In this document: positions 1 through 9,726 of the stretch, piece by piece
How the letters are laid out: each line of letters opens with the position of its first letter
Numbering within the stretch: the stretch's first letter is position 1
Source: Lachnospiraceae bacterium
GTDB lineage: Bacteria; Bacillota_A; Clostridia; Lachnospirales; Lachnospiraceae
Direction: 5' to 3'
DNA: 15,473 bases
NCBI GenBank assembly: GCA_017435025.1
Contig: JAFSFU010000077.1
Coordinates: 1 to 15,473, forward strand
The notes under the pieces: generated by a model
Seen by the model: only the letters and a program-made list of their open reading frames with translations
What the model was told of the DNA's origin: nothing
The model's database searches: none
Made by a program: the position numbers and the translations under genes

Positions 1-49
1 CGCCTGTACGACGATTGCGATAAATGCGCTTGCAATCTTTGTACAGGCG
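1..49. repeat. Nested hairpin at window edge
   Basis: A 9-bp perfect inverted repeat, CGCCTGTAC (1-9) and GTACAGGCG (41-49), encloses a second one, GATTGC (13-18) and GCAATC (32-37). Together they form a long hairpin. No T-run follows on the plus strand, and the minus-strand side lies outside the window, so its use as a terminator cannot be judged. It may belong to the same family of palindromic intergenic elements found further right, but no shared sequence is visible. Confidence 0.5.
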
Positions 50-83
50 AAAATCTTTGGAAGCTCAGTCGTCCAGCCTATCA

Positions 84-147
84 TTTTCAGAATATGGGAT
101 TTTCTAATAGACACTTTCAATCTTACTCAATCAAAATATCACAATAA
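84..147 (-). repeat. Half copy of palindromic element C (C')
   Basis: This stretch is nearly identical to the reverse complement of 8438-8504. The 29 bases at 119-147 match 8438-8466 exactly as reverse complement, and the arm CAGAATATGGGATTTT (88-103) matches 8482-8497. In the intact copy at 8444-8574 this arm pairs with a second arm 23 bases away. Here that partner is absent from 1-83, so only half of the palindrome remains within the window. It may have been truncated or replaced by other sequence. Confidence 0.7.
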
Positions 148-181
148 AAACGAACCTCTCATGTGTATGTCCCATGCATAG

Positions 182-455
182 TTCATTCAGATGTAAGTTT
201 CTTTCATTTTATTGTTGGATTATAAAAGTAAATGCAGTATTCTTCAAACGATTTGCAAGGCTTTCGAGATTTTGTCTGTGCTAATTTCAGCTGCGGCGCT
301 CTGTTTGAGCTCCGTAGGAGCGAGTTAGCAGAGCAGCTGATCATAGATGCACGGACGAAATCCGAAAACGAAGCATGTTTGAGGATACTGCATTTACTTT
401 ATAATCTTATAATTTAATGAACTGCTAAAACTTACATCACTGAATGAAATATCAA
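182..455 (-). repeat. Large imperfect palindrome, copy A
   Basis: The whole stretch folds on itself. The outer arm TTCATTCAGATGTAAG (182-197) pairs with 431-448. Arm 218-249 pairs with 377-406 over about 30 bp with two bulges. Arm 262-281, ending in GTCTGTGC, pairs with 349-367. CAGCTGC (288-294) pairs with GCAGCTG (333-339), GCTCTG (298-303) with CAGAGC (329-334), and GCTCC (309-313) with GGAGC (317-321) around a GTA loop. Copy B at 8142-8362 is the homologue in opposite orientation, with the same apical core but different, still complementary stems. The element begins directly after the stop codon of the M20 gene. A 61-codon open frame inside it (232-417) is judged to be a by-product of the palindrome. 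Whether it is a MITE, a structured RNA or a terminator-like 3' UTR is not known. Confidence 0.8.
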
Positions 456-456
456 A

Positions 457-1824
457 TCAATTCTTAAAATCCACACTCACATTTCCATCTTCGTCATACA
501 TCACGACGTCTTTATCCAGAATCAGTTCGTTGATGGATTCCAAATATTCAGAAATAGAAGTATATACCGGATGGTAGTTTGCGATGATTTCCTTTGCAGC
601 AGCCGCATCATTTCCAAGAAGGGCATCGGCTACGAAAAGCTGAGCTTTTGCGGAGTTGACGCAGAGGCGCTCCGGATCGGAAACCTGATAGTCGATTCCG
701 TGCACGGTGCCGGATGCGCCCATACAGTTGAACTGTACGCCCGGCATGACCTGAGTGACATCACCGAAGTCGGAAGTTCCGGTCTGCCATGCTTTGTAAT
801 CGAAAGCAACTTTATCGTCACCAACCAGATTTTTACAGCACTGTTCTGCCAGCTGCATGAATGCCGGATCGTGGTATGCTGGGGAATGTCCCGGACGGTC
901 AGAAATCTCAACGCCTGCCCCCATTGCGAGAGCAGCACCAGCCATTGCACGGTTCAGCTTCACGTTCTCTTTTTTGATCGCAGCGATGGTTTTTGCGCGA
1001 ACATGGCTCTCCAGAACGATCTCATCAGGGATGATGTTTACTGCACAGTTTGCACCCATTACGATCGGGTGGAAACGGATCATATCTTTTTCCTGGAAAG
1101 TCTCGCGAAGATTGTTTGCCGCCTGCATACCCAGCATCGCCGCGTACTGTGCGTTGATCCCGAGATGCGGAGAACCGCCGGCATGGGAGGATTTACCTTT
1201 GAATTTAACTGTTTTCATAATACAGCCGTTGTTGCCGGAAGTACAGGAAAATTCGGTATTCTTGCCCGGTCCTGCAACGCCGCCGTGTACCATAAATGCA
1301 AGATCTACACCATCATAGAAACCGCGGCGCATCAGCTCGATCTTGCCGCCGAAGAATGCGATAGTACCTTTTTTGCGGAGATTCTCACGGAATCCCAGCT
1401 GGATCATCTCTTCTGCCGGAACCACCATCAGACGGATCTTACCGCACATACCATCCAGAGCACCCGGCTGTTTTAAGGCAGCTGCAACGCCGAGAAGTGC
1501 AGCGCACTGTGCATGATGACCACAGCAGTGTGTCATACCGTTTACGGATTCCGGATGATTGGCGATATCCAGAGCGTCCAACTCACCCATGATACAAAGG
1601 GTAGGTCCCGGTCTTCCGGTATCGAGATCTGTATAAAAACCTGGAATATTGCCGGCCTGTGTCAGGGTATATCCAAGACTTTCAAATTTTTCCGTCAGAT
1701 ATTCGTTTGCCTGCCACTCGGTAAAGCCGGTCTGCGGATGTGCCCACAGCCAACGCTCTGCTTCCAGGATCATATTTCGGTTGCAGTTTACATGTTCGAT
1801 CATACACTGCTGTCTCTCAGTCAT
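457..1824 (-). CDS. M20 family metallopeptidase / amidohydrolase
   Basis: Predicted zinc-dependent cytoplasmic amidohydrolase of the M20 (AbgA/AbgB, aminoacylase-like) group, which cleaves amide bonds of N-acyl amino acids or similar small substrates. The true substrate cannot be told. From the chosen start it is 455 aa, normal for the family. Visible motifs are GELDAL near residue 80 (conserved Asp), the metal-ligand segment CGHH near 101-104, the catalytic Glu pair in PAEE near 138, a ligand His in MVHGG near 180, the SSHAGGSPH lid-domain motif near 212, and the last ligand His in GTVHG near 375. The usual CGHDxH motif reads CGHHAQ here. The frame is open upstream to 1854, but ATG at 1824 has an AAGGAGGA ribosome binding site at 1832-1839 with good spacing, so it is preferred. 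No signal peptide is seen. The gene stands alone and is divergent from the histidine kinase operon; its stop abuts palindrome copy A. Confidence 0.9.
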   Translation of the reverse strand: MTERQQCMIEHVNCNRNMILEAERWLWAHPQTGFTEWQANEYLTEKFESLGYTLTQAGNIPGFYTDLDTGRPGPTLCIMGELDALDIANHPESVNGMTHCCGHHAQCAALLGVAAALKQPGALDGMCGKIRLMVVPAEEMIQLGFRENLRKKGTIAFFGGKIELMRRGFYDGVDLAFMVHGGVAGPGKNTEFSCTSGNNGCIMKTVKFKGKSSHAGGSPHLGINAQYAAMLGMQAANNLRETFQEKDMIRFHPIVMGANCAVNIIPDEIVLESHVRAKTIAAIKKENVKLNRAMAGAALAMGAGVEISDRPGHSPAYHDPAFMQLAEQCCKNLVGDDKVAFDYKAWQTGTSDFGDVTQVMPGVQFNCMGASGTVHGIDYQVSDPERLCVNSAKAQLFVADALLGNDAAAAKEIIANYHPVYTSISEYLESINELILDKDVVMYDEDGNVSVDFKN

Positions 1825-1863
1825 GTTATATTCCTCCTTGCGATTGAGATTCAATATACATGA

Positions 1864-1872
1864 ATTATACCA
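1864..1872 (-). promoter_or_regulatory. Extended -10 promoter of the M20 gene
   Basis: Read on the minus strand this is TGGTATAAT, a perfect -10 box with a TGn extension. No good -35 box lies 17 bases upstream (TTCTCT at best), as is common for extended -10 promoters. It would start transcription about 30 bases before the M20 ribosome binding site. Confidence 0.6.
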
Positions 1873-1925
1873 TTATTCACAGCAAAAGAGAAGATTTTAG
1901 AATTGTTTTATAAACGCAGCAGACG

Positions 1926-1940
1926 AAGTATGGTATACTT
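1926..1940 (+). promoter_or_regulatory. Extended -10 promoter of the histidine kinase operon, overlapping a 15-bp palindrome
   Basis: TGGTATACT (1931-1939) is an extended -10 element about 27 bases before the kinase ATG. It lies inside a perfect inverted repeat, AAGTAT-GGT-ATACTT (1926-1940), which could be an operator for a repressor or the cognate response regulator. That regulatory role is inference; such short palindromes also arise by chance around -10 boxes. Confidence 0.45.
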
Positions 1941-1965
1941 TATTATGAAAGAGAGGGCGATACGT

Positions 1966-3444
1966 ATGAAAATTCGTACAAGATTAATGATCGCATTTCT
2001 GATCATTACCGTTGTACCGATTTCGTTGATCTATATGTCGATCATGGCATTGAACAGTTATCAAGGAAAAGTGTTCAGTGAGACTTATGGAATCGAAGAA
2101 CGGGTAGATCTTTCTTCCGGTACATCGATTCGTATTTTCAGTCACTTGACCGAAACCGTACAGCTGGAGATTGACCGGGCGCTGAAAACAAACGCAGAGC
2201 AGTTCCTTGATCCGGCTTTTTTGGAAAATGTGAATGATCGATTACAGCAGAATCATTCCTTTATGGTGGTATTGAAGGAGCAGGAAGTAGTATTTACCGG
2301 AAATGCCAATACAACTTATGAACTGGCGCAGGAGATGGAAGGTTTTGATGAACTGGGCAGTACTGCTGCCTGGGGAAATTACCTGGATAGTGAGACAGAG
2401 CATCTGATCAAGCAGAGATCCTTTGCGTTTGCAGATGGGGCTGAAGGCAGTATTCTTCTGGTTACCAATGTAGTGGAAGTGGTGCCGGAAGTAAGATCCA
2501 TGTTCCTTGAAATGCTGGTTTCCGGCGTGATTATTCTTTTCATCACAGCGGCTATCATGGTGGCCTGGGTCTATCGTTCTATCTGGAAGCCATTGGAGCA
2601 GCTGCAGGAGGCGACCAGACAGATCCGCGATGGAAATCTGGACTTTACGCTGGAGGTGGAAGATGATGATGAACTTGGGCAGCTCTGTCAGAACTTTGAG
2701 GAGATGCGCATTCGTCTGAAAGAGACCACGGAAGAAAAGATTCAGTATGATAAGGAAAGCAAGGAGCTGATCAGCAATATTTCCCATGATCTAAAAACAC
2801 CGATCACAGCGATCAAAGGTTATGTGGAAGGTATTCTGGATGGTGTAGCATCTTCTCCGGAGAAGCTGGACCGTTATATCCGAACAATCTACAATAAGGC
2901 GAATGATATGGATCGTCTGATCGATGAACTGACGTTTTATTCCAAGATCGACACCAACAAAATTCCGTATGCATTTGCTAAAATCAACGTGGCAGATTAT
3001 TTTGGAGATTGTATCGATGAAGTTGGTCTGGATCTGGAGGCCCGGGGAATCGATCTGGGATATTACAATTACGTGGAAGAAGATGTGCTTGTTATCGCCG
3101 ATGCGGAGCAGCTGAAGCGTGTGATCAACAATATTATTGGCAATTCGCTGAAATATATGGATAAAAAACAGGGAATCATTAATATCCGGATTCTGGATGT
3201 GGGTGATTTTGTTCAGATTGAGATTGAAGATAACGGAAAAGGTATCGGACAAAAAGAACTGCCGTATATTTTTGACCGGTTTTACCGGACCGATTCTTCC
3301 AGAAATTCCTCCAAAGGCGGCAGTGGAATCGGTCTTTCCATTGTACGAAAGATTATTGAGGACCATGGCGGAAAAATCTGGGCAACAAGCAAACTGGGTG
3401 TCGGTACGGAGATCCATTTTGTACTGAGAAAGATCAATGCATAG
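1966..3444 (+). CDS. Membrane sensor histidine kinase (HAMP, HisKA, HATPase_c)
   Basis: Two-component sensor kinase that autophosphorylates on a histidine and passes phosphate to the response regulator encoded 12 bp downstream. From ATG 1966 it is 492 aa. A transmembrane helix at about residues 5-27 is followed by an extracytoplasmic sensing region of about 150 aa with no recognised fold. A second helix at about 182-203 leads into a HAMP linker at about 206-260. The H-box SHDLKTP places the phospho-acceptor His at 274. The N-box with NNIIGNSLKY is near 388, the G1 box DNGKGIG near 422 and the G2 box GGSGIGLSI near 451. The frame is open upstream to a TTG at 1903, but ATG 1966 is preferred because it follows AGAGGG and starts with a typical MKIRTR basic N-terminus; ATG 1945 is possible. 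The signal sensed is unknown. First gene of a probable four-gene operon. Confidence 0.93.
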   Translation: MKIRTRLMIAFLIITVVPISLIYMSIMALNSYQGKVFSETYGIEERVDLSSGTSIRIFSHLTETVQLEIDRALKTNAEQFLDPAFLENVNDRLQQNHSFMVVLKEQEVVFTGNANTTYELAQEMEGFDELGSTAAWGNYLDSETEHLIKQRSFAFADGAEGSILLVTNVVEVVPEVRSMFLEMLVSGVIILFITAAIMVAWVYRSIWKPLEQLQEATRQIRDGNLDFTLEVEDDDELGQLCQNFEEMRIRLKETTEEKIQYDKESKELISNISHDLKTPITAIKGYVEGILDGVASSPEKLDRYIRTIYNKANDMDRLIDELTFYSKIDTNKIPYAFAKINVADYFGDCIDEVGLDLEARGIDLGYYNYVEEDVLVIADAEQLKRVINNIIGNSLKYMDKKQGIINIRILDVGDFVQIEIEDNGKGIGQKELPYIFDRFYRTDSSRNSSKGGSGIGLSIVRKIIEDHGGKIWATSKLGVGTEIHFVLRKINA

Positions 3445-3456
3445 AAGGAGTACAGT

Positions 3457-4146
3457 ATGAGCAGGATTTTAATTGTAGAAGATGAAGTGAGTATTGCGGA
3501 ACTGGAGAAGGACTACCTGGAACTTTCCGGTTTTGAGGTGGAAATTGAAAATGACGGTACAGACGGATTGAAACGGGCACTGGATGAGGATTTTGATCTA
3601 GTGATTCTGGATTTAATGCTTCCGGGAGTTGATGGATTTGAAATCTGCAGAAAGATCCGTGAAGTGAAGAATACACCGATCATTATGGTGTCTGCAAAGC
3701 GGGATGATATCGATAAGATCCGAGGCCTTGGCCTTGGTGCGGATGACTATATGACAAAACCGTTCAGCCCGAGTGAGATGGTGGCTCGCGTGAAGGCCCA
3801 TATGGCCCGTTATGAGCGACTGATCAGCAGCGGCATGCCGGTTAATGATATTATCGAGATTCGTGGCTTAAAGATTGATAAGACAGCGCGGCGCGTGTAT
3901 GTGAACGGGGAGGAGCGCAACTTTACAACTAAGGAATTTGATCTTCTCACATTTCTGGCGCAGAACCCGAACCATGTCTTTACAAAAGAAGAACTGTTTT
4001 CCAAGATCTGGGATATGGAGTCTATCGGTGATATTGCGACTGTAACGGTTCATATTAAGAAAATCCGTGAAAAAATCGAGTTAAATACTGCGAAACCGCA
4101 GTATATCGAGACGATCTGGGGAGTCGGATACAGATTTAAGGTATAG
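3457..4146 (+). CDS. OmpR/PhoB-family response regulator
   Basis: DNA-binding response regulator, 229 aa, the expected length for the OmpR family. The receiver domain covers about residues 1-120, with acidic residues E8, D9 and E10 in the metal pocket, phospho-acceptor D52 in LVILDLMLPG, a switch Ser near 79 and conserved K101 in MTKPF. A winged-helix trans_reg_C domain covers about 128-229 and ends in the typical WGVGYRFKV. Start ATG 3457 has GAAGGAG seven bases upstream. It lies 12 bp after the kinase stop, so the pair is co-transcribed and almost certainly cognate. It may regulate its own operon, including the phosphatase and transporter downstream; this is inferred from position. Confidence 0.95.
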   Translation: MSRILIVEDEVSIAELEKDYLELSGFEVEIENDGTDGLKRALDEDFDLVILDLMLPGVDGFEICRKIREVKNTPIIMVSAKRDDIDKIRGLGLGADDYMTKPFSPSEMVARVKAHMARYERLISSGMPVNDIIEIRGLKIDKTARRVYVNGEERNFTTKEFDLLTFLAQNPNHVFTKEELFSKIWDMESIGDIATVTVHIKKIREKIELNTAKPQYIETIWGVGYRFKV

Positions 4147-4178
4147 AAAATTGTATGAGATGAAAAAGGGGCAGAATT

Positions 4179-5003
4179 ATGGATAAGCAGCAGTTGTTAA
4201 GAGAGACAGAACTTTTTGTTTTGGATATGGACGGAACCTTCTATTTAGATAATGATATTTTAGAGGGATCTCTGGAGTTTTTGGAGCAGGTGAAACGGCT
4301 GGGTAAACAGTTCGTATTTTTTACCAACAATTCTTCCAAATCACCGAAAACCTATATGGATAAGCTGGCGAAGATGAACTGTTTTATCGAGAGAAATCAG
4401 ATTATTACTTCCGGCGATGTGATGATCCAGTATCTGAAGGAATTCTATCCGGATAAGACAGTTTATCTGGTTGGAACACCGGATTTGGAAGCGAACTTTA
4501 TGGAAAATGGGATCAAGCTCACAAAGGATATGCCGGATGTGGTTGTGATCGGGTTTGATCTGACTCTGACCTATGAAAAACTGGAGCGAGCATGTACCTA
4601 TATTCGAAACGGTGCCGTATTCCTCGCAACACATCTGGATATCAATTGTCCGACAAAGGACGGATTTATCCCGGACTGCGGAGTCATGTGCGCGGCGATC
4701 GCGCTTTCCACAGGCAAAGAACCGAAATATGTGGGAAAACCGTTTAAGGAAACCGTGGATATGGTTCTTTCCATGACCGGTGCAAAGCGTGAACATGTGA
4801 CTTTTGTGGGAGATCGCCTTTATACGGATGTGAAAACCGGTGTGGCCAACGGAGCCCGCGGAATTTTGGTGCTCAGTGGTGAGACAAAGCTGGAAGATGT
4901 GCCGAAATCCGATACACATCCGGATGCAATCTTTAAAGATCTGCGAGAGATGGGCCTGTTGATGGAAAAAATGCAACTTGACAACGCCACAGTACAGGAT
5001 TAA
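4179..5003 (+). CDS. HAD-IIA family phosphatase (NagD / p-nitrophenyl phosphatase-like)
   Basis: Cytoplasmic haloacid-dehalogenase phosphatase of subclass IIA, which includes NagD, PNPase-type and phosphoglycolate or sugar phosphate phosphatases. The substrate cannot be assigned. The protein is 274 aa, normal for the group. Motif I is VLDMDGT with nucleophile D16 and acid/base D18. Motif II is FFTNNSS near 47-53. The IIA cap domain follows, with motif III K187 in VGKPFK and motif IV in FVGDRLYTD, where D212 and D217 bind Mg. The start ATG follows AAAGGGGC. It lies 32 bp after the response regulator with no terminator between, which supports one operon. A link to the signal or to the transporter's cargo is possible but unproven. 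Confidence 0.9.
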   Translation: MDKQQLLRETELFVLDMDGTFYLDNDILEGSLEFLEQVKRLGKQFVFFTNNSSKSPKTYMDKLAKMNCFIERNQIITSGDVMIQYLKEFYPDKTVYLVGTPDLEANFMENGIKLTKDMPDVVVIGFDLTLTYEKLERACTYIRNGAVFLATHLDINCPTKDGFIPDCGVMCAAIALSTGKEPKYVGKPFKETVDMVLSMTGAKREHVTFVGDRLYTDVKTGVANGARGILVLSGETKLEDVPKSDTHPDAIFKDLREMGLLMEKMQLDNATVQD

Positions 5004-5049
5004 ACTTAGGGGTGGACTTTTAGTACTAAAGAAAGAAAAGAGGATTGTC

Positions 5050-6246
5050 ATGAAGTACAAGACAAGATTTTTGGGCTTCTTTGCGTCTATGATTGTGTTC
5101 AACCTGGCTGCAAACTTTGCTCATCCGGTAACTCCGACCGTCATTCAGGAACTGAATCTGCATGATTATATGTTCGGTGTGGCACTTGCTGCGATGATGG
5201 TAACAAACTTTTTAATGTCACCGTTCTGGGGAAAAATCAATGTGTATATTTCCTCCAGATTATCTCTTTTGATCTGCTGTCTTGGTTATGGTATTGCACA
5301 GGTATGGTTCGCTTATGCGACAACGGAACTGATGATTATTCTGGCCCGCATGTTTGCAGGCTTGTTTACCGGCGGCATTTTCGTAAGCTTCTTAACTTAT
5401 GTGGTTAACGTGGCAAAACCGGAAGATCAGGCGAAATATCTGACTTACAGTGCGACGATCCAGAGTGTTGCCGCAGCTTTTGGCTATATGATCGGCGGTT
5501 TTATCGGCGAGTTTTCTGTGAAGGCTGCATTCCTGGTTCAGGCAGGTACATTATTTGTTGTTGCGATCGCATTCTTCCTGATCTGTGAGCCGGATGCACA
5601 TTCTGAGGTTAAGATTTCCGGCAGGCAGCTGGCAAAAGAGGCCAATCCGTTCCAGGCATTTATGGATGCCGGAAAGTTTATGACCGTTGCGTTTGCATTG
5701 CTGTTTGCAGTAAATATTCTGATCAACTTCGGTAATACTGGTTTTGATCAGGCGTTCAACTACTATTTAAAAGATCAGATGGGTCTTACTTCTTCCTATA
5801 ACGGAATTATTAAGGCAGCTGTTGGTCTTGTTTCCTTCGTATCCAATATGACTTTGTGCATCTGGATCATCAACAAGACAAATGTAAAGAAATCGATGGT
5901 AGTGCTTGTGTCTGTCTGCACACTGGCAGCGGTCGGAACTCTGATCGTTCCGAATATCGGTCTGTTTATCGCATTCAGTGTTCTGGTATATGCCGGATAT
6001 TCTGTAAGTATTCCGGTTCTTCAGGATATGGTTGCAAAACTGGCAGACCCGGCGCAGAAGAATCTGGTTATGGGTTTCTTTAACGCGACAAAATCTTTGG
6101 GAAGTATTGCAGGTTCTCTGATCGCAGGCTTTATTTATTCGGTTCATGCAAAGCTGCCGTTTGCGATCACGGTTGTGATCTACGGTCTCAGCGTGGTTGT
6201 TGCAGTAAGCTATATGACATACGGAAGAAAAACAAAGAGGGCTTAG
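5050..6246 (+). CDS. MFS transporter, 12-helix
   Basis: Major facilitator superfamily permease in the cytoplasmic membrane, 398 aa from ATG 5050, normal for a 12-helix MFS protein. Long hydrophobic segments run along the whole protein. A motif-A-like loop after helix 2 reads FWGKINVYISSR. A central loop near residues 180-210 (HSEVKISGRQLAKEANP) separates two six-helix halves. Glycine-rich helix segments such as GYMIGGFIGEF and GSIAGSLIAGFIY are typical. The frame is open back to 4978 inside the phosphatase gene, but ATG 5050 follows AAAGAAAAGAGGA and gives a normal short basic N-terminus before helix 1. The gap of 46 bp to the phosphatase has no terminator. Substrate unknown; efflux of drugs or metabolites is as likely as uptake. 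Last gene of the two-component operon. Confidence 0.9.
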   Translation: MKYKTRFLGFFASMIVFNLAANFAHPVTPTVIQELNLHDYMFGVALAAMMVTNFLMSPFWGKINVYISSRLSLLICCLGYGIAQVWFAYATTELMIILARMFAGLFTGGIFVSFLTYVVNVAKPEDQAKYLTYSATIQSVAAAFGYMIGGFIGEFSVKAAFLVQAGTLFVVAIAFFLICEPDAHSEVKISGRQLAKEANPFQAFMDAGKFMTVAFALLFAVNILINFGNTGFDQAFNYYLKDQMGLTSSYNGIIKAAVGLVSFVSNMTLCIWIINKTNVKKSMVVLVSVCTLAAVGTLIVPNIGLFIAFSVLVYAGYSVSIPVLQDMVAKLADPAQKNLVMGFFNATKSLGSIAGSLIAGFIYSVHAKLPFAITVVIYGLSVVVAVSYMTYGRKTKRA

Positions 6247-6285
6247 AAACCAGGATATTTCTGGAAGGATTGGAAATGATGCTTC

Positions 6286-6314
6286 TTGACAGAAAAGCCT
6301 GGAACTGATATAGT
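6286..6314 (+). promoter_or_regulatory. Strong sigma-A type promoter before the DEAD-box helicase
   Basis: A perfect -35 box TTGACA (6286-6291), a 17-base spacer and a -10 box TATAGT (6309-6314) form the best promoter in the window. Transcription would begin near 6321, only about a dozen bases before the terminator hairpin at 6332. This implies a leader of about 124 bases for the helicase gene. Confidence 0.75.
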
Positions 6315-6331
6315 TACATACGGATTTGAGG

Positions 6332-6367
6332 GGAAGATTCGGGAGAGAACCTGAATCTTCCTTTTTT
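6332..6367 (+). terminator. Intrinsic terminator between MFS gene and helicase gene
   Basis: GGAAGATTCGGG (6332-6343) pairs with CCTGAATCTTCC (6350-6361) around AGAGAA, followed by six T. It can end the two-component/MFS operon. Because it lies downstream of the 6286-6314 promoter, it would also act on transcripts from that promoter as an attenuator. Confidence 0.85.
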
Positions 6368-6398
6368 CTGTTTTGAAACGTGTTGAATCATGAGGGCA

Positions 6399-6415
6399 GA
6401 CCGGACTTACCGGTC
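6399..6415 (+). promoter_or_regulatory. Leader hairpin upstream of helicase start
   Basis: GACCGG (6399-6404) and CCGGTC (6410-6415) form a 6-bp hairpin with loop ACTTA. An alternative pairing, CGGAC (6402-6406) with GTCCG (6418-6422), is mutually exclusive with it. The hairpin lies about 20 bases before the AAAGGA ribosome binding site (6433-6438) and could affect translation of the helicase. Function is inferred only. Confidence 0.4.
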
Positions 6416-6444
6416 ATGTCCGACAAGTTCAGAAAGGAACATAG

Positions 6445-8139
6445 ATGGAAGCAGTAAGATTTGAAGAATTAAATTTAGATCCGCGTATCATGCGCGCGAT
6501 CACTGATATGGGATTTGAAGCCGCATCTCCAATTCAGGCGCAGGCGATTCCGGTGCAGATGGAAGGAAAGGACATGATCGGTCAGGCGCAGACAGGTACC
6601 GGCAAGACCGCGGCATTCGGTATTCCGATGTTGCAGAAGATCGATCCGGATAATCGTAAAACACAGGCGATTATTCTCTGTCCGACCAGAGAACTGGCAA
6701 TTCAGGTTGCAGAGGAGCTGCGAAGACTGGCAAAGTACATGGCCGGTATCAAGGTCCTCCCTGTTTACGGTGGTCAGGAGATCATCAAACAGATCCGTTC
6801 TTTAAAGGGCGGTGTGCAGATCATCGTCGGAACACCGGGACGTGTGATGGACCATATGAGAAGAAAAACCATTCGTACTGACGCGATCCATACGGCAGTT
6901 CTGGATGAGGCAGATGAGATGTTAAACATGGGCTTCTTGGAGGATATGGAGCTGATCCTGGGTGAGATGCCGGAGGAACGTCAGACTGTGATGTTCTCTG
7001 CAACCATGCCAAAGGAAATTGCAGAGATTGCAAGAAAGTTCCAGAAAGATCCGGAGAATGTTAAAGTAGTTAAAAAAGAGCTGACCGTTCCGGAAGTAAC
7101 CCAGTATTATTATGAAGTAAAGCCGAGAAATAAAGTGGAAGTTATGTGTCGTCTTCTCGACATGTATTCCCCCAAACTGTCCGTTGTATTCTGCAATACA
7201 AAAAATCAAGTGGATGAACTGGTACAGGCACTCCAGGGCCGAGGCTATTTCGCAGAAGGTCTTCACGGTGATCTGAAGCAGGAGCAGAGAGACCGAGTTA
7301 TGGATAGTTTCCGTAACGGCGCCACAGAAATCCTGGTTGCTACAGACGTGGCTGCACGCGGTATCGACGTGGATGATGTGGAGGCTGTGTTTAACTTTGA
7401 TATTCCGCAGGATAATGAGTACTACGTGCACCGAATCGGTCGTACCGGCCGTGCAGGCCGTGTGGGCCGTGCGTTCAGCCTGGCAGTAGGAAGCGAAGTT
7501 TACAAACTTCGTGATATCCAGCGTTTCTGTAAGACCAAGATCATTCCGCAGGCGATTCCGTCTCTCAACGATGTAACAGCCATCAAGGCAGAGAAGATTT
7601 TGGATGATGTAAAAGAGATTATTGAGAACGGCGGTCTGGAGCGTATGACCAGAATCGTGGAGAAGCGCCTTCTGGCAGAAGATTATACTTCTATGGAACT
7701 TGCTGCAGCATTCTTAAAGATGAACATGGGAGATGCCTACGAAGATATCGCCGATGAGGGAAGACCATTAAGAAGTCTGGACGAGTTAGAGCGCAGAGGC
7801 GGAAGAGATGGTCGCGGCAGCCGAGACAGCAGAGGTCGCGGCAGAGGTCGTGGACGTGACGATTATGACGATTTCGATGGCGGAAAAGGAAACCGCGGCG
7901 GCATGGTCAGACTGTTCATCAATCTGGGCAAGAACCAGAACATCAAACCGGGCGATATTGTAGGCGCTATCGCAGGCGAGACCGGTATGCCGGGCAAACT
8001 GATCGGAACCATCGATATGTACGATAAATATACCTTCGTGGATGTTCCGAAAGCACAGGCCGATATTGTGCTGGATGCCATGAATCGTGCAAAGATCAAA
8101 GGCAAGAACGTGCATGTGGAGAAGGCTAATAAGAGGTAG
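6445..8139 (+). CDS. deaD: DEAD-box ATP-dependent RNA helicase (DeaD/CsdA/CshA type)
   Basis: ATP-dependent RNA helicase that remodels structured RNA, typically in ribosome assembly, mRNA decay and cold growth. It is 564 aa. The Q-motif region SPIQAQAIP is near residues 28-36, Walker A AQTGTGKT at 48-55, PTREL at 80-84, TPGR at 130-133, DEAD at 154-157 and SAT at 185-187. In the second RecA domain ARGID is near 304 and HRIGRTGR at 329-336. A linker at about 450-472 is rich in Arg and Gly. A C-terminal DbpA-type RNA-binding (RRM-like) domain covers about 486-564. This layout is that of DeaD/CsdA-like helicases; CshA is an equally valid name in Firmicutes. The start ATG follows AGAAAGGA. It appears to be monocistronic with its own promoter and a leader containing a terminator hairpin, so autoregulation is plausible. 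Its stop is three bases from palindrome copy B. Confidence 0.95.
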   Translation: MEAVRFEELNLDPRIMRAITDMGFEAASPIQAQAIPVQMEGKDMIGQAQTGTGKTAAFGIPMLQKIDPDNRKTQAIILCPTRELAIQVAEELRRLAKYMAGIKVLPVYGGQEIIKQIRSLKGGVQIIVGTPGRVMDHMRRKTIRTDAIHTAVLDEADEMLNMGFLEDMELILGEMPEERQTVMFSATMPKEIAEIARKFQKDPENVKVVKKELTVPEVTQYYYEVKPRNKVEVMCRLLDMYSPKLSVVFCNTKNQVDELVQALQGRGYFAEGLHGDLKQEQRDRVMDSFRNGATEILVATDVAARGIDVDDVEAVFNFDIPQDNEYYVHRIGRTGRAGRVGRAFSLAVGSEVYKLRDIQRFCKTKIIPQAIPSLNDVTAIKAEKILDDVKEIIENGGLERMTRIVEKRLLAEDYTSMELAAAFLKMNMGDAYEDIADEGRPLRSLDELERRGGRDGRGSRDSRGRGRGRGRDDYDDFDGGKGNRGGMVRLFINLGKNQNIKPGDIVGAIAGETGMPGKLIGTIDMYDKYTFVDVPKAQADIVLDAMNRAKIKGKNVHVEKANKR

Positions 8140-8141
8140 AA

Positions 8142-8362
8142 TTGATATTTCATTCAGTAATTATATAACAAAAATCGGTGTACAAAGATAGCTTCGTTTT
8201 CGAAGTTCATCCGTGCGCTTATAAGCAACTGCTCCCGCAACTCATCCCTTCGGGACTCAAACACTGCTCCGCAGTTGCAGCTAGCACAGATGAACTTTAC
8301 GAAAGCCTCGCAATCATCTTTGCTACACCGATTTTGTTTTATAATACTGAATCAAATATCTC
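8142..8362 (+). repeat. Large imperfect palindrome, copy B
   Basis: Homologue of copy A (182-455) in opposite orientation. The ends GATATTTCATTCAG (8144-8157) and CTGAATCAAATATC (8347-8360) are inverted repeats. Arm 8161-8189, containing AATCGGTGTACAAAGAT, pairs with 8316-8345. The arm with GTTCATCCGTGC (8205-8216) pairs with GCACAGATGAAC (8284-8295). CAACTGC and GCAGTTG pair near the tip, and a short TCCC/GGGA stem closes on a three-base loop (GAA in element orientation). Compared with copy A the stem bases differ on both sides yet still pair, while unpaired motifs such as TTTGAG and GAGTT are kept. It starts directly after the helicase stop codon. The open frame 8178-8393 within it has no ribosome binding site and is not a gene. 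Confidence 0.8.
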
Positions 8363-8443
8363 TGATAAAAACACGAAATTTTACACATATTGATTTTGAT
8401 GAATTATACATGCAACATGCATACAAGAGATTTGTTCTTATTG
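8363..8443. other. Spacer between palindromes B and C
   Basis: AT-rich non-coding spacer. Its right-hand half (about 8400-8443) is homologous, as reverse complement, to 143-186 next to copy A, showing that the B-C pair is a composite unit. It holds a small imperfect hairpin around ATGCAACATGCAT. About 50 bases at its left have no counterpart near copy A. Confidence 0.5.
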
Positions 8444-8574
8444 TGATATTTTGATTGAGTAAGATTAAAAGTATATATTAAAAAATCCCATATTCTGAAA
8501 ATGGTAGTTAGCCGTATTTGCAGAACATGGGATTTTCTACATGAATAACTTTTTATTTACTCAACAAAATATCA
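8444..8574 (-). repeat. Palindromic element C, intact copy
   Basis: The ends are inverted repeats: TGATATTTTGATTGAGTAAG (8444-8463) on the left and its near complement at 8548-8574 on the right. A central 16-bp stem joins AAAATCCCATATTCTG (8482-8497) to CAGAACATGGGATTTT (8521-8536), with one G/T wobble. The right end lies three bases from the fucO stop codon. Half of the same element is found at 84-147. Confidence 0.75.
8479..8536 (-). terminator. Terminator of fucO (core of element C)
   Basis: On the minus strand the 16-bp stem of element C, with a 23-base loop, is followed by a run of six T (8484 down to 8479). It lies about 42 bases after the fucO stop. The A/T-rich flanks on both sides mean it may also stop transcripts from the helicase side. 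The loop is long for a classic terminator, so efficiency is uncertain. Confidence 0.6.
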
Positions 8575-8577
8575 ATC

Positions 8578-9726
8578 CTACTTCATAATCTTTCTGAACA
8601 GCATCTTGAAGTCTTCAATGCTTGCTTCTTTCGGGTTACCCGGTGCGCATGCATCTGCGTATGCGGACTCAGCAAGGAACTGTAAATCTTCTTCTTTCAG
8701 TGCTTCGAGTACAGTTGGGATTCCAACGTCTACGGAAAGCTGCTGAACTGCATTGATGGCGGCTTTTCTGTACTCTTCAACGGACATTTCGTCAACGCCT
8801 TTCACACCCATTACTCTGGCGATCTCACGGTATTTTTCGCCTGTGCATTCCTGGTTGTATTCCATAACGATCGGAAGCATCATTGCACATGCAACGCCGT
8901 GCGGAGTATCATATACAGCACCAAGTGTATGTGCCATGGAATGTGCAATACCGAGGCCTACGTTGGAGAAGCCCATTCCGGCGATATACTGGCCGAGAGC
9001 CATATCCTCACGACCCTTTGGTGTATTGGCAACTGCATCACGGAGAGATCTGCCGATGATTTCGATTGCCTTTAAGTGGAACATATCGGTCATTTCCCAT
9101 GCGGCCTTTGTTGTGTAACCTTCAATCGCATGTGTCAGGGCATCCATACCAGTGGAGGCTGTCAGGCCCTTCGGCATTGTGGACATCATATCCGGGTCAA
9201 CGATTGCAACGATCGGCATATCGTGCGGATCAACGCAAACGAATTTACGTTTTCTTTCCACATCTGTGATAACATAGTTGATGGTAACTTCTGCAGCAGT
9301 ACCTGCAGTTGTTGGAACCGCAATGATCGGAACGCACGGTTTCTTTGTTGGAGCCACGCCCTCCAGACTTCTCACATCTTCAAATTCCGGGTTAGCGATA
9401 ATGATACCGATTGCTTTTGCAGTATCCATAGAAGAACCGCCACCGATCGCTACGATATAGTCTGCGCCGGATTTTTTGAAGGATTCCACGCCGTTCTGTA
9501 CGTTTTCGATGGTCGGGTTTGCTTTGATATCGGAGTAGATTTCATATGCTAATTCATTGGCATCTAAAATATCGGTTACTTTGGAAGTAACACCAAATTT
9601 GATCAGATCCGGATCGGAACATACGAACGCTTTCTTAAAGCCGCAAGCTTTTGCTTCGTTGGCGATTTCCATAATCGCACCGGAGCCGTGGTAAGATGTC
9701 TGATTTAACATAATTCTGTTTGCCAT
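8578..9726 (-). CDS. fucO: Lactaldehyde reductase (iron-containing alcohol dehydrogenase, FucO type)
   Basis: Group III iron-dependent alcohol dehydrogenase, 382 aa. Long stretches match my memory of E. coli FucO, including NPEFEDVRSLEG near 112-123, TTAGTAAEVTINYVITD near 139-155 and KFVCVDPHD near 161-169. FucO interconverts L-lactaldehyde and 1,2-propanediol with NADH in fermentation of fucose or rhamnose. The NAD-binding motif GGGSSMD is at 95-101. Metal ligands are expected at D195, H199, H262 and H276. The start ATG has AGGAGG at about 9733-9738. No fucose or rhamnose catabolic genes lie next to it, so other aldehydes are possible substrates. Transcribed alone, divergent from the YheO-type regulator, with element C as likely terminator. 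Confidence 0.92.
   Translation of the reverse strand: MANRIMLNQTSYHGSGAIMEIANEAKACGFKKAFVCSDPDLIKFGVTSKVTDILDANELAYEIYSDIKANPTIENVQNGVESFKKSGADYIVAIGGGSSMDTAKAIGIIIANPEFEDVRSLEGVAPTKKPCVPIIAVPTTAGTAAEVTINYVITDVERKRKFVCVDPHDMPIVAIVDPDMMSTMPKGLTASTGMDALTHAIEGYTTKAAWEMTDMFHLKAIEIIGRSLRDAVANTPKGREDMALGQYIAGMGFSNVGLGIAHSMAHTLGAVYDTPHGVACAMMLPIVMEYNQECTGEKYREIARVMGVKGVDEMSVEEYRKAAINAVQQLSVDVGIPTVLEALKEEDLQFLAESAYADACAPGNPKEASIEDFKMLFRKIMK

What the first reader, a model, noticed from the sequence alone, without database searches (positions are those of the whole stretch)
182..8362. Two large palindromes with the same tip but compensatory changes along their stems
Copies A (182-455) and B (8142-8362) share the apical core and unpaired motifs TTTGAG and GAGTT. 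Their stems differ and yet both pair. In element orientation A has GATTTTGTCTGTGC facing GCACGGACGAAATC, and B has AAGTTCATCTGTGC facing GCACGGATGAACTT. The tip stem is CAGCTGC/GCAGCTG in A and CAACTGC/GCAGTTG in B. The outer stems (218-249 with 377-406; 8161-8189 with 8316-8345) are unrelated in sequence but each is self-complementary over 28-30 bp. Such covariation implies selection on a folded RNA or cruciform rather than on sequence. I do not recognise the element as a named RNA family.
Basis: seen in the sequence. Interest (0 to 1): 0.78.

Follow-up and report, generated by a model that had tools for sequence, protein, structure and literature searches.

The report
Mobile palindromes with conserved folded core
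The two hairpin-like sequences belong to a family of small gene-less DNA elements, evidently mobile, in gut-type bacteria; their paired arms change in step while a folded core stays the same, which hints at an unknown mobilising machinery.

Summary
A and B are two diverged copies, in opposite orientation, of one non-coding element. Model R1 (A, B and a copy from a relative) found strong copies in 5 of 145 relatives; R3 (48 sequences) in 53 of 397 Lachnospiraceae genomes. R2 hit 3 of 391 genomes of a class-wide draw, all also hit in the family draw. Rfam has no match at either copy. Compensatory change is strong: 382 double-changed cells against 114 in shuffles; arms outside the model pair with their own partner in 74 of 83 copies, with arms of other genomes in 5 of 830. 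The RNA reading is only partly supported: outer arms show no G.T over A.C bias (102 vs 94), the core a weak one-strand bias. Copies moved recently: eight identical cores in one genome; in another, direct repeats of 10-11 bp beside two of four copies. In one genome the element shares 24-bp palindromic boundary sites with other element types, in rows. Best reading: a MITE-like mobile family whose folded core is a cis signal for an unidentified recombinase or transposase.

The parts
178..452 (+). copy A, whole palindrome (element orientation = window +)
   Evidence: inverted repeats 178-190/440-452, 203-226/398-421, 225-243/382-400; fold
237..389 (+). copy A, conserved core covered by models R1-R3
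253..260 (+). copy A, unpaired motif TTGCAAGG of the first internal loop, conserved in most members
   Evidence: alignment; letters
304..309 (+). copy A, apical motif TTTGAG
322..326 (+). copy A, apical motif GAGTT
363..374 (+). copy A, CGAAAACGAAGC (paired at both ends, 5-nt bulge)
78..186 (+). copy A, 5' part: one side of palindrome P1 and spacer, 85 percent alike in copy B
   Evidence: inverted repeat I1; alignment
8142..8362 (-). copy B, whole palindrome (element orientation = window -)
8177..8328 (-). copy B, conserved core
8256..8261 (-). copy B, apical motif TTTGAG
8239..8243 (-). copy B, apical motif GAGTT
8399..8507 (-). spacer and one side of P1, matching 78-186
8440..8576 (-). palindrome P1 of copy B, with hairpin arms 8479-8502/8516-8539 flanked by A and T runs
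8130..8587 (.). outermost inverted repeat of B (8130-8163 / 8554-8587), overlapping the stop codons of the two convergent neighbours (ends 8139 and 8578)

Best explanation
A and B are copies of a non-coding, MITE-like mobile element of Lachnospiraceae, roughly 240-450 bp long (ends estimated in a few genomes only). It has lineage-specific inverted ends, fast-changing complementary arms, and a rod-shaped core of about 150 nt with conserved unpaired motifs. No copy examined carries a gene of its own, so it is presumably moved in trans. Shown: the family, the covariation, recent copying in two genomes. Inferred: the core is a cis-acting signal recognised as folded DNA (single strand or cruciform) by an unidentified recombinase or transposase, and the arms stay complementary because the fold is needed, perhaps helped by template-switch correction of inverted repeats. 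Copies lie mostly behind genes, where P1-type hairpins could also serve as terminators.
For: Family: R1 strong in 5 of 145 relatives, one of them the source of copy C; R3 53 of 397. Covariation. Mobility: the seven G356 copies first found have the same 154-nt core at different places, four within 270 bases of a contig end, and an eighth lies in L381; three identical 151-nt cores in G302 and direct repeats of 10 and 11 bp outside two of four copies (the other two 5 and 2; mismatched pairs at most 5). Ends: a 24-bp palindromic site occurs 86 times (up to 1 mismatch) in G356 against 1 for the reversed pattern, bounding this element and others, with shared sites in rows. No gene: of the frames that overlap cores the four longest were examined, one is a radical SAM gene beside the core, three had no Pfam match and look like shadow frames; the 26 G356 units hold no frame over 76 aa. 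Context: 29 convergent, 39 same-direction, 3 divergent among 71 copies with both neighbours (no genome-wide baseline computed). Strand symmetry of arms.
Against: No mobilising enzyme was identified, and only neighbours of the copies were looked at: the largest shared protein cluster spans 8 of 35 genomes (ABC ATPase by its look), the next 4. The seven G356 copies show no direct repeat above control while two of four in G302 do, so one mechanism may not fit all. The core is more stable on one strand (65 of 72), which also fits RNA. Promoter-like sites exceed shuffles in 1-9000 (25 vs 15.8), some of them inside A and B. No clean empty site was found: relatives lack the element behind the same genes, but different genes follow there.
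Confidence: 0.6

Rival explanations
1. A structured non-coding RNA, spread by duplication or transposition, whose rod is selected as RNA.
For: Strong covariation and conserved unpaired motifs; element strand folds better as RNA in 65 of 72 cores; core columns G.T 19 vs A.C 8, or 35 vs 9 if wobble pairs count in the column filter; some G425 and G378 copies are followed on the same side by a terminator-like hairpin; promoter-like sites in both copies.
Against: Outer arms strand-symmetric; core bias weaker than in SRP RNA; no orientation preference between same-direction genes (18 sense, 21 antisense, counted by eye); no Rfam match. Promoter conservation and transcription were not tested.
Confidence: 0.25
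2. Bidirectional transcription terminators or 3' end structures kept between genes, covarying as hairpins.
For: Copies lie behind genes (only 3 of 71 divergent); relatives have short hairpins with the look of terminators behind the same genes; P1 of B is a hairpin with A and T runs.
Against: Does not explain the conserved loops, the lineage-specific ends or eight identical cores in one genome. The terminator scan found 7 sites in 1-9000 against 6.9 in shuffles, one of 5 pairs inside B; it allows loops of 3-8 only, so it could not see P1.
Confidence: 0.1
3. Compensatory changes are purely mutational (template switching between arms), with no selection on the fold.
For: Outer arms are strand-symmetric with few wobble pairs.
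Against: Asymmetric conserved internal loops persist although such correction would erase them; core stems keep position across the family. Not tested directly.
Confidence: 0.1

Closest known systems
MITEs such as BOX, RUP and SPRITE of Streptococcus pneumoniae
   Same: small, gene-less, dispersed, intergenic, highly base-paired, modular, inserting into one another (passages of PMC3049150 and PMC10969869)
   Different: rod with conserved unpaired motifs and covarying stems kept across a bacterial family; ends differ by lineage; no parent IS identified
REPINs (REP doublets thought to be moved by RAYT transposases)
   Same: palindromic, gene-less, extragenic; compensatory changes in the hairpin reported (passages of PMC3116915)
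   Different: REPs are 20-40 bp (abstract of PMC3733652 in the listing), this element some 240-450 bp; a RAYT link was not tested
Integron attC sites and cassette arrays
   Same: imperfect palindromes with poor sequence conservation and fixed unpaired bases (passages of PMC2727003); in G356 elements share boundary sites in rows
   Different: no gene in the units, no integrase searched for or found, boundary site is a 24-bp palindrome; attC sites are 57-142 nt
Palindromic structured-RNA candidates of human gut metagenomes (Fremin and Bhatt)
   Same: 250 of 3161 candidates are palindromic (passages of PMC8040213)
   Different: 230 of those 250 were predicted terminators; whether this family is among the candidates could not be checked (supplements not available)

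Membership tests
MITE | short, non-coding, dispersed multi-copy | tested here: met
   only the four longest frames overlapping cores were examined
MITE | terminal inverted repeats | tested here: met
   seen in G302, G356, G425 and window B
MITE | target site duplication | tested here: inconclusive
   2 of 4 copies in G302; none above control in 7 of G356
MITE | parent transposon with the same ends | not tested
   only neighbours of the copies were compared
Integron cassette / attC | cassette carries a gene next to attC | tested here: not met
   26 G356 units of 261-602 bases hold no frame over 76 aa
Integron cassette / attC | IntI integrase in the genome | not tested
   no search made
REPIN | two 20-40 bp REP palindromes as the repeat unit | tested here: not met
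   one long rod with a core of about 150 nt
REPIN | cognate RAYT gene | not tested
   no search made
Rfam RNA family | match to a covariance model | tested here: not met
   0 at gathering score; up to E 5 four weak matches, none at A or B; 0 up to E 0.1 in 20 member loci
structured RNA in general | wobble pairs favoured on the RNA strand | tested here: inconclusive
   arms no, core weakly

The most novel reading that the evidence does not exclude
A gene-less, integron-like recombination system of Lachnospiraceae: several unrelated families of folded DNA cassettes, of which this rod is one, are inserted, stacked and shared at common palindromic sites by a dedicated recombinase that reads the folded core as single-stranded DNA.
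Probability: 0.2. Interest if true: 0.85.

Novelty: new variant of a known kind. Interest (0 to 1): 0.6.

Why it matters
It would be a mobile element family, unnamed in the sources searched here, in a major family of gut bacteria, in which covariation, normally taken as a sign of functional RNA, at least in the arms reflects a DNA palindrome. That is a warning for RNA discovery pipelines and a lead to an unknown DNA-folding recombinase. The rows of elements in G356 make the question testable.

Tried and rejected
Phages and plasmids, with copy B as query: no match. Rfam. A 26-position pattern from the core found nothing in genome contigs, so the second scan used the neighbouring histidine kinase. 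Viral scans with short patterns: 120 and 11 stretches, of which a BLAST with A and B showed only short matches, and 0 for a third; a longer apical pattern gave one hit at the end of an 11.2-kb contig, not pursued. Autonomous copies: the four longest frames overlapping cores were not mobility genes. A recombinase between two G356 sites 3035 bp apart: the frames there look like housekeeping genes, by recall. Relation of the G356 site to dif: a consensus recalled from memory gave one match with 3 mismatches in one of seven genomes and two in the controls; inconclusive, idea dropped. A link between P1 of the window and the 321/326-bp elements of G356 through a shared ACTTGT was dropped after folding. 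The first strand test over whole arms (G.T 229, A.C 303, 72 copies) is superseded because fixed loops enter it; its SRP counterpart (G.T 133, A.C 44) suffers likewise. Literature: eight listings showed no paper recognisable by title or abstract as describing this family; passages of five papers were seen, none read whole.

Full report
What is there. P2 is a rod: variable outer arms; an internal loop with TTGCRAGG on one side and an ACGAA bulge on the other; a stem of about 13 pairs; a second internal loop; a tip stem; and an apical part T(T/C)TGAG-hairpin-GAGTT. B with its P1 fills the space between the stop codons of two convergent genes (6445-8139 and 8578-9726, a DEAD-box helicase and an alcohol dehydrogenase by their look); A abuts the stop of a gene at 457-1854 (names by recall, no family scan).

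Finding the family. No genome is held for the window. Relatives of the neighbouring kinase, at best 80 percent identical, are Lachnospiraceae. One of them, G001, held a third copy C with further compensatory changes. Model R1 from A, B and C found strong copies in 5 of 145 relatives: G001, G002, and G033, G035, G068; 9 of 145 at E 1. R2 (13 sequences) found 43 of 397 family genomes at E 0.01, R3 (48 sequences) 53 of 397 at E 0.001. Only 7 candidates per genome were scored in these, so counts are floors. In a class-wide draw of 391 genomes R2 hit 3, each also hit in the family draw; the same request with R3 did not complete.

Covariation. On 46 distinct sequences 85.6 percent of cells pair (59.8 in shuffles), 33 of 35 pairs have a double change (24.6), 382 cells are double-changed (114.4) and the covariation score is 0.599 (0.171; slid structures at most 0.115). 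That alignment was fitted to the structure, and related sequences can beat such shuffles. Independent of it, arms strictly outside the modelled positions were compared: 74 of 83 copies score 8 or more with their own partner (median 16), 5 of 830 with arms of other genomes (median 0, largest 29) and 65 of 302 with other copies of the same genome (median 3). In G341, nine copies score 0 to 25 with their own partner, and 66 of 72 cross pairings score under 9; the copy with 0 (L301) has an IS3-like sequence beside it (IS3 by recall).

RNA or DNA. If the folded molecule is RNA, G.U should outnumber A.C at changed pairs. Outer arms (with the 8 outermost core bases): G.T 102, A.C 94 over 81 copies in 34 genomes, p = 0.62. 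Core columns at least 80 percent Watson-Crick (25): G.T 19, A.C 8 among 1098 cells; letting wobble count in the filter (26 columns), 35 and 9. SRP RNA from 30 element-bearing genomes, 50 of 78 RNAalifold pairs: G.T 53, A.C 5. Folded as RNA the element strand is more stable than its complement in 65 of 72 cores and in 28 of 31 genome means (mean 6.8 kcal/mol; SRP 30 of 30, 22.3). Part of the core bias may come from fixed loop letters shared by descent. So the arms behave as DNA inverted repeats, and the core is undecided between RNA and one folded DNA strand.

Mobility. In G356 seven copies, and an eighth in L381, have the same 154-nt core; around the seven the flanks stay alike out to about 46-50 bases on the left and, with a few changes, 38 on the right, then differ. 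The ends lie in a 24-bp palindrome TTTCNNAANNTATANNTTNNGAAA, found 86 times with up to one mismatch against 1 for the reversed pattern. Such sites bound this element (spacings 237-250), two other palindromic types (321 and 326) and longer repeat arrays, and neighbours share a site, as in L381 with three units in a row. No direct repeat beyond control flanks the seven copies (matched 4-9, mismatched 4-11). In G302, three copies have identical cores; of four copies examined two carry direct repeats of 10 and 11 bp, three bases or fewer outside the end motif, where mismatched pairs give at most 5 and the other two copies 5 and 2. By eye, ends differ between G035, G166, G285, G302, G341, G356, G425 and the window.

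Context. Of 83 copies, some identical, 71 had a frame on both sides: 29 convergent, 39 same direction, 3 divergent; 12 incomplete (a simple frame caller that can pick shadow frames; no genome-wide baseline). Same-direction copies are 18 sense and 21 antisense, counted by eye. Behind the same genes in relatives there is a short terminator-like hairpin and no element (L133 for A; L134 and L136 for B), but other genes follow.

Judgement. The covariation and the family are well supported, mobility is supported by identical copies in two genomes. The mechanism, a folded DNA signal read by an unknown enzyme, is inference. The closest known kind is the MITE; the conserved covarying rod, the lineage-specific ends and the shared-site rows make it a variant that the searches listed here did not show as described.

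Noticed in passing
window 1-155 and 8440-8576; L212 1194-1365; L236 1172-1344: A second palindrome (P1) precedes P2 at A, B, C and in L236; its base stems also seem to differ between copies while still pairing (by eye).
   Followed up: partly
L380, L381, L384, L387, L390, L391, L393, L397 (G356): Two further palindromic element types (321 and 326 bp between sites) with different stems but similar inner motifs, bounded by the same 24-bp site.
   Followed up: partly
L382, L383, L385, L288, L397 (G356): Arrays of short palindromic repeat units (ACCTTCC.. and TTACGTACT..) bounded by the same 24-bp site or a version with up to 2 mismatches.
   Followed up: no
L290, L291 (G425); L410-L412, L414 (G378): Copies of two different genomes share an outer left motif GGCATCGGGCRTGGCG; L290 and L410-L414 also hold a hairpin GGGCTGT..ACAGCCC beyond the right end that looks like a terminator.
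   Followed up: partly
L301 near 1998 (G341): An IS3-like element (by recall) abuts the palindrome, whose outer arms no longer pair.
   Followed up: no
window 1-49: The window begins inside a small palindrome (arms 1-18 / 32-49); if this is a contig end, the assembly may have broken at a repeat.
   Followed up: no
L333 11125-11154: One contig of the viral collection ends near the apical motif of the family.
   Followed up: no
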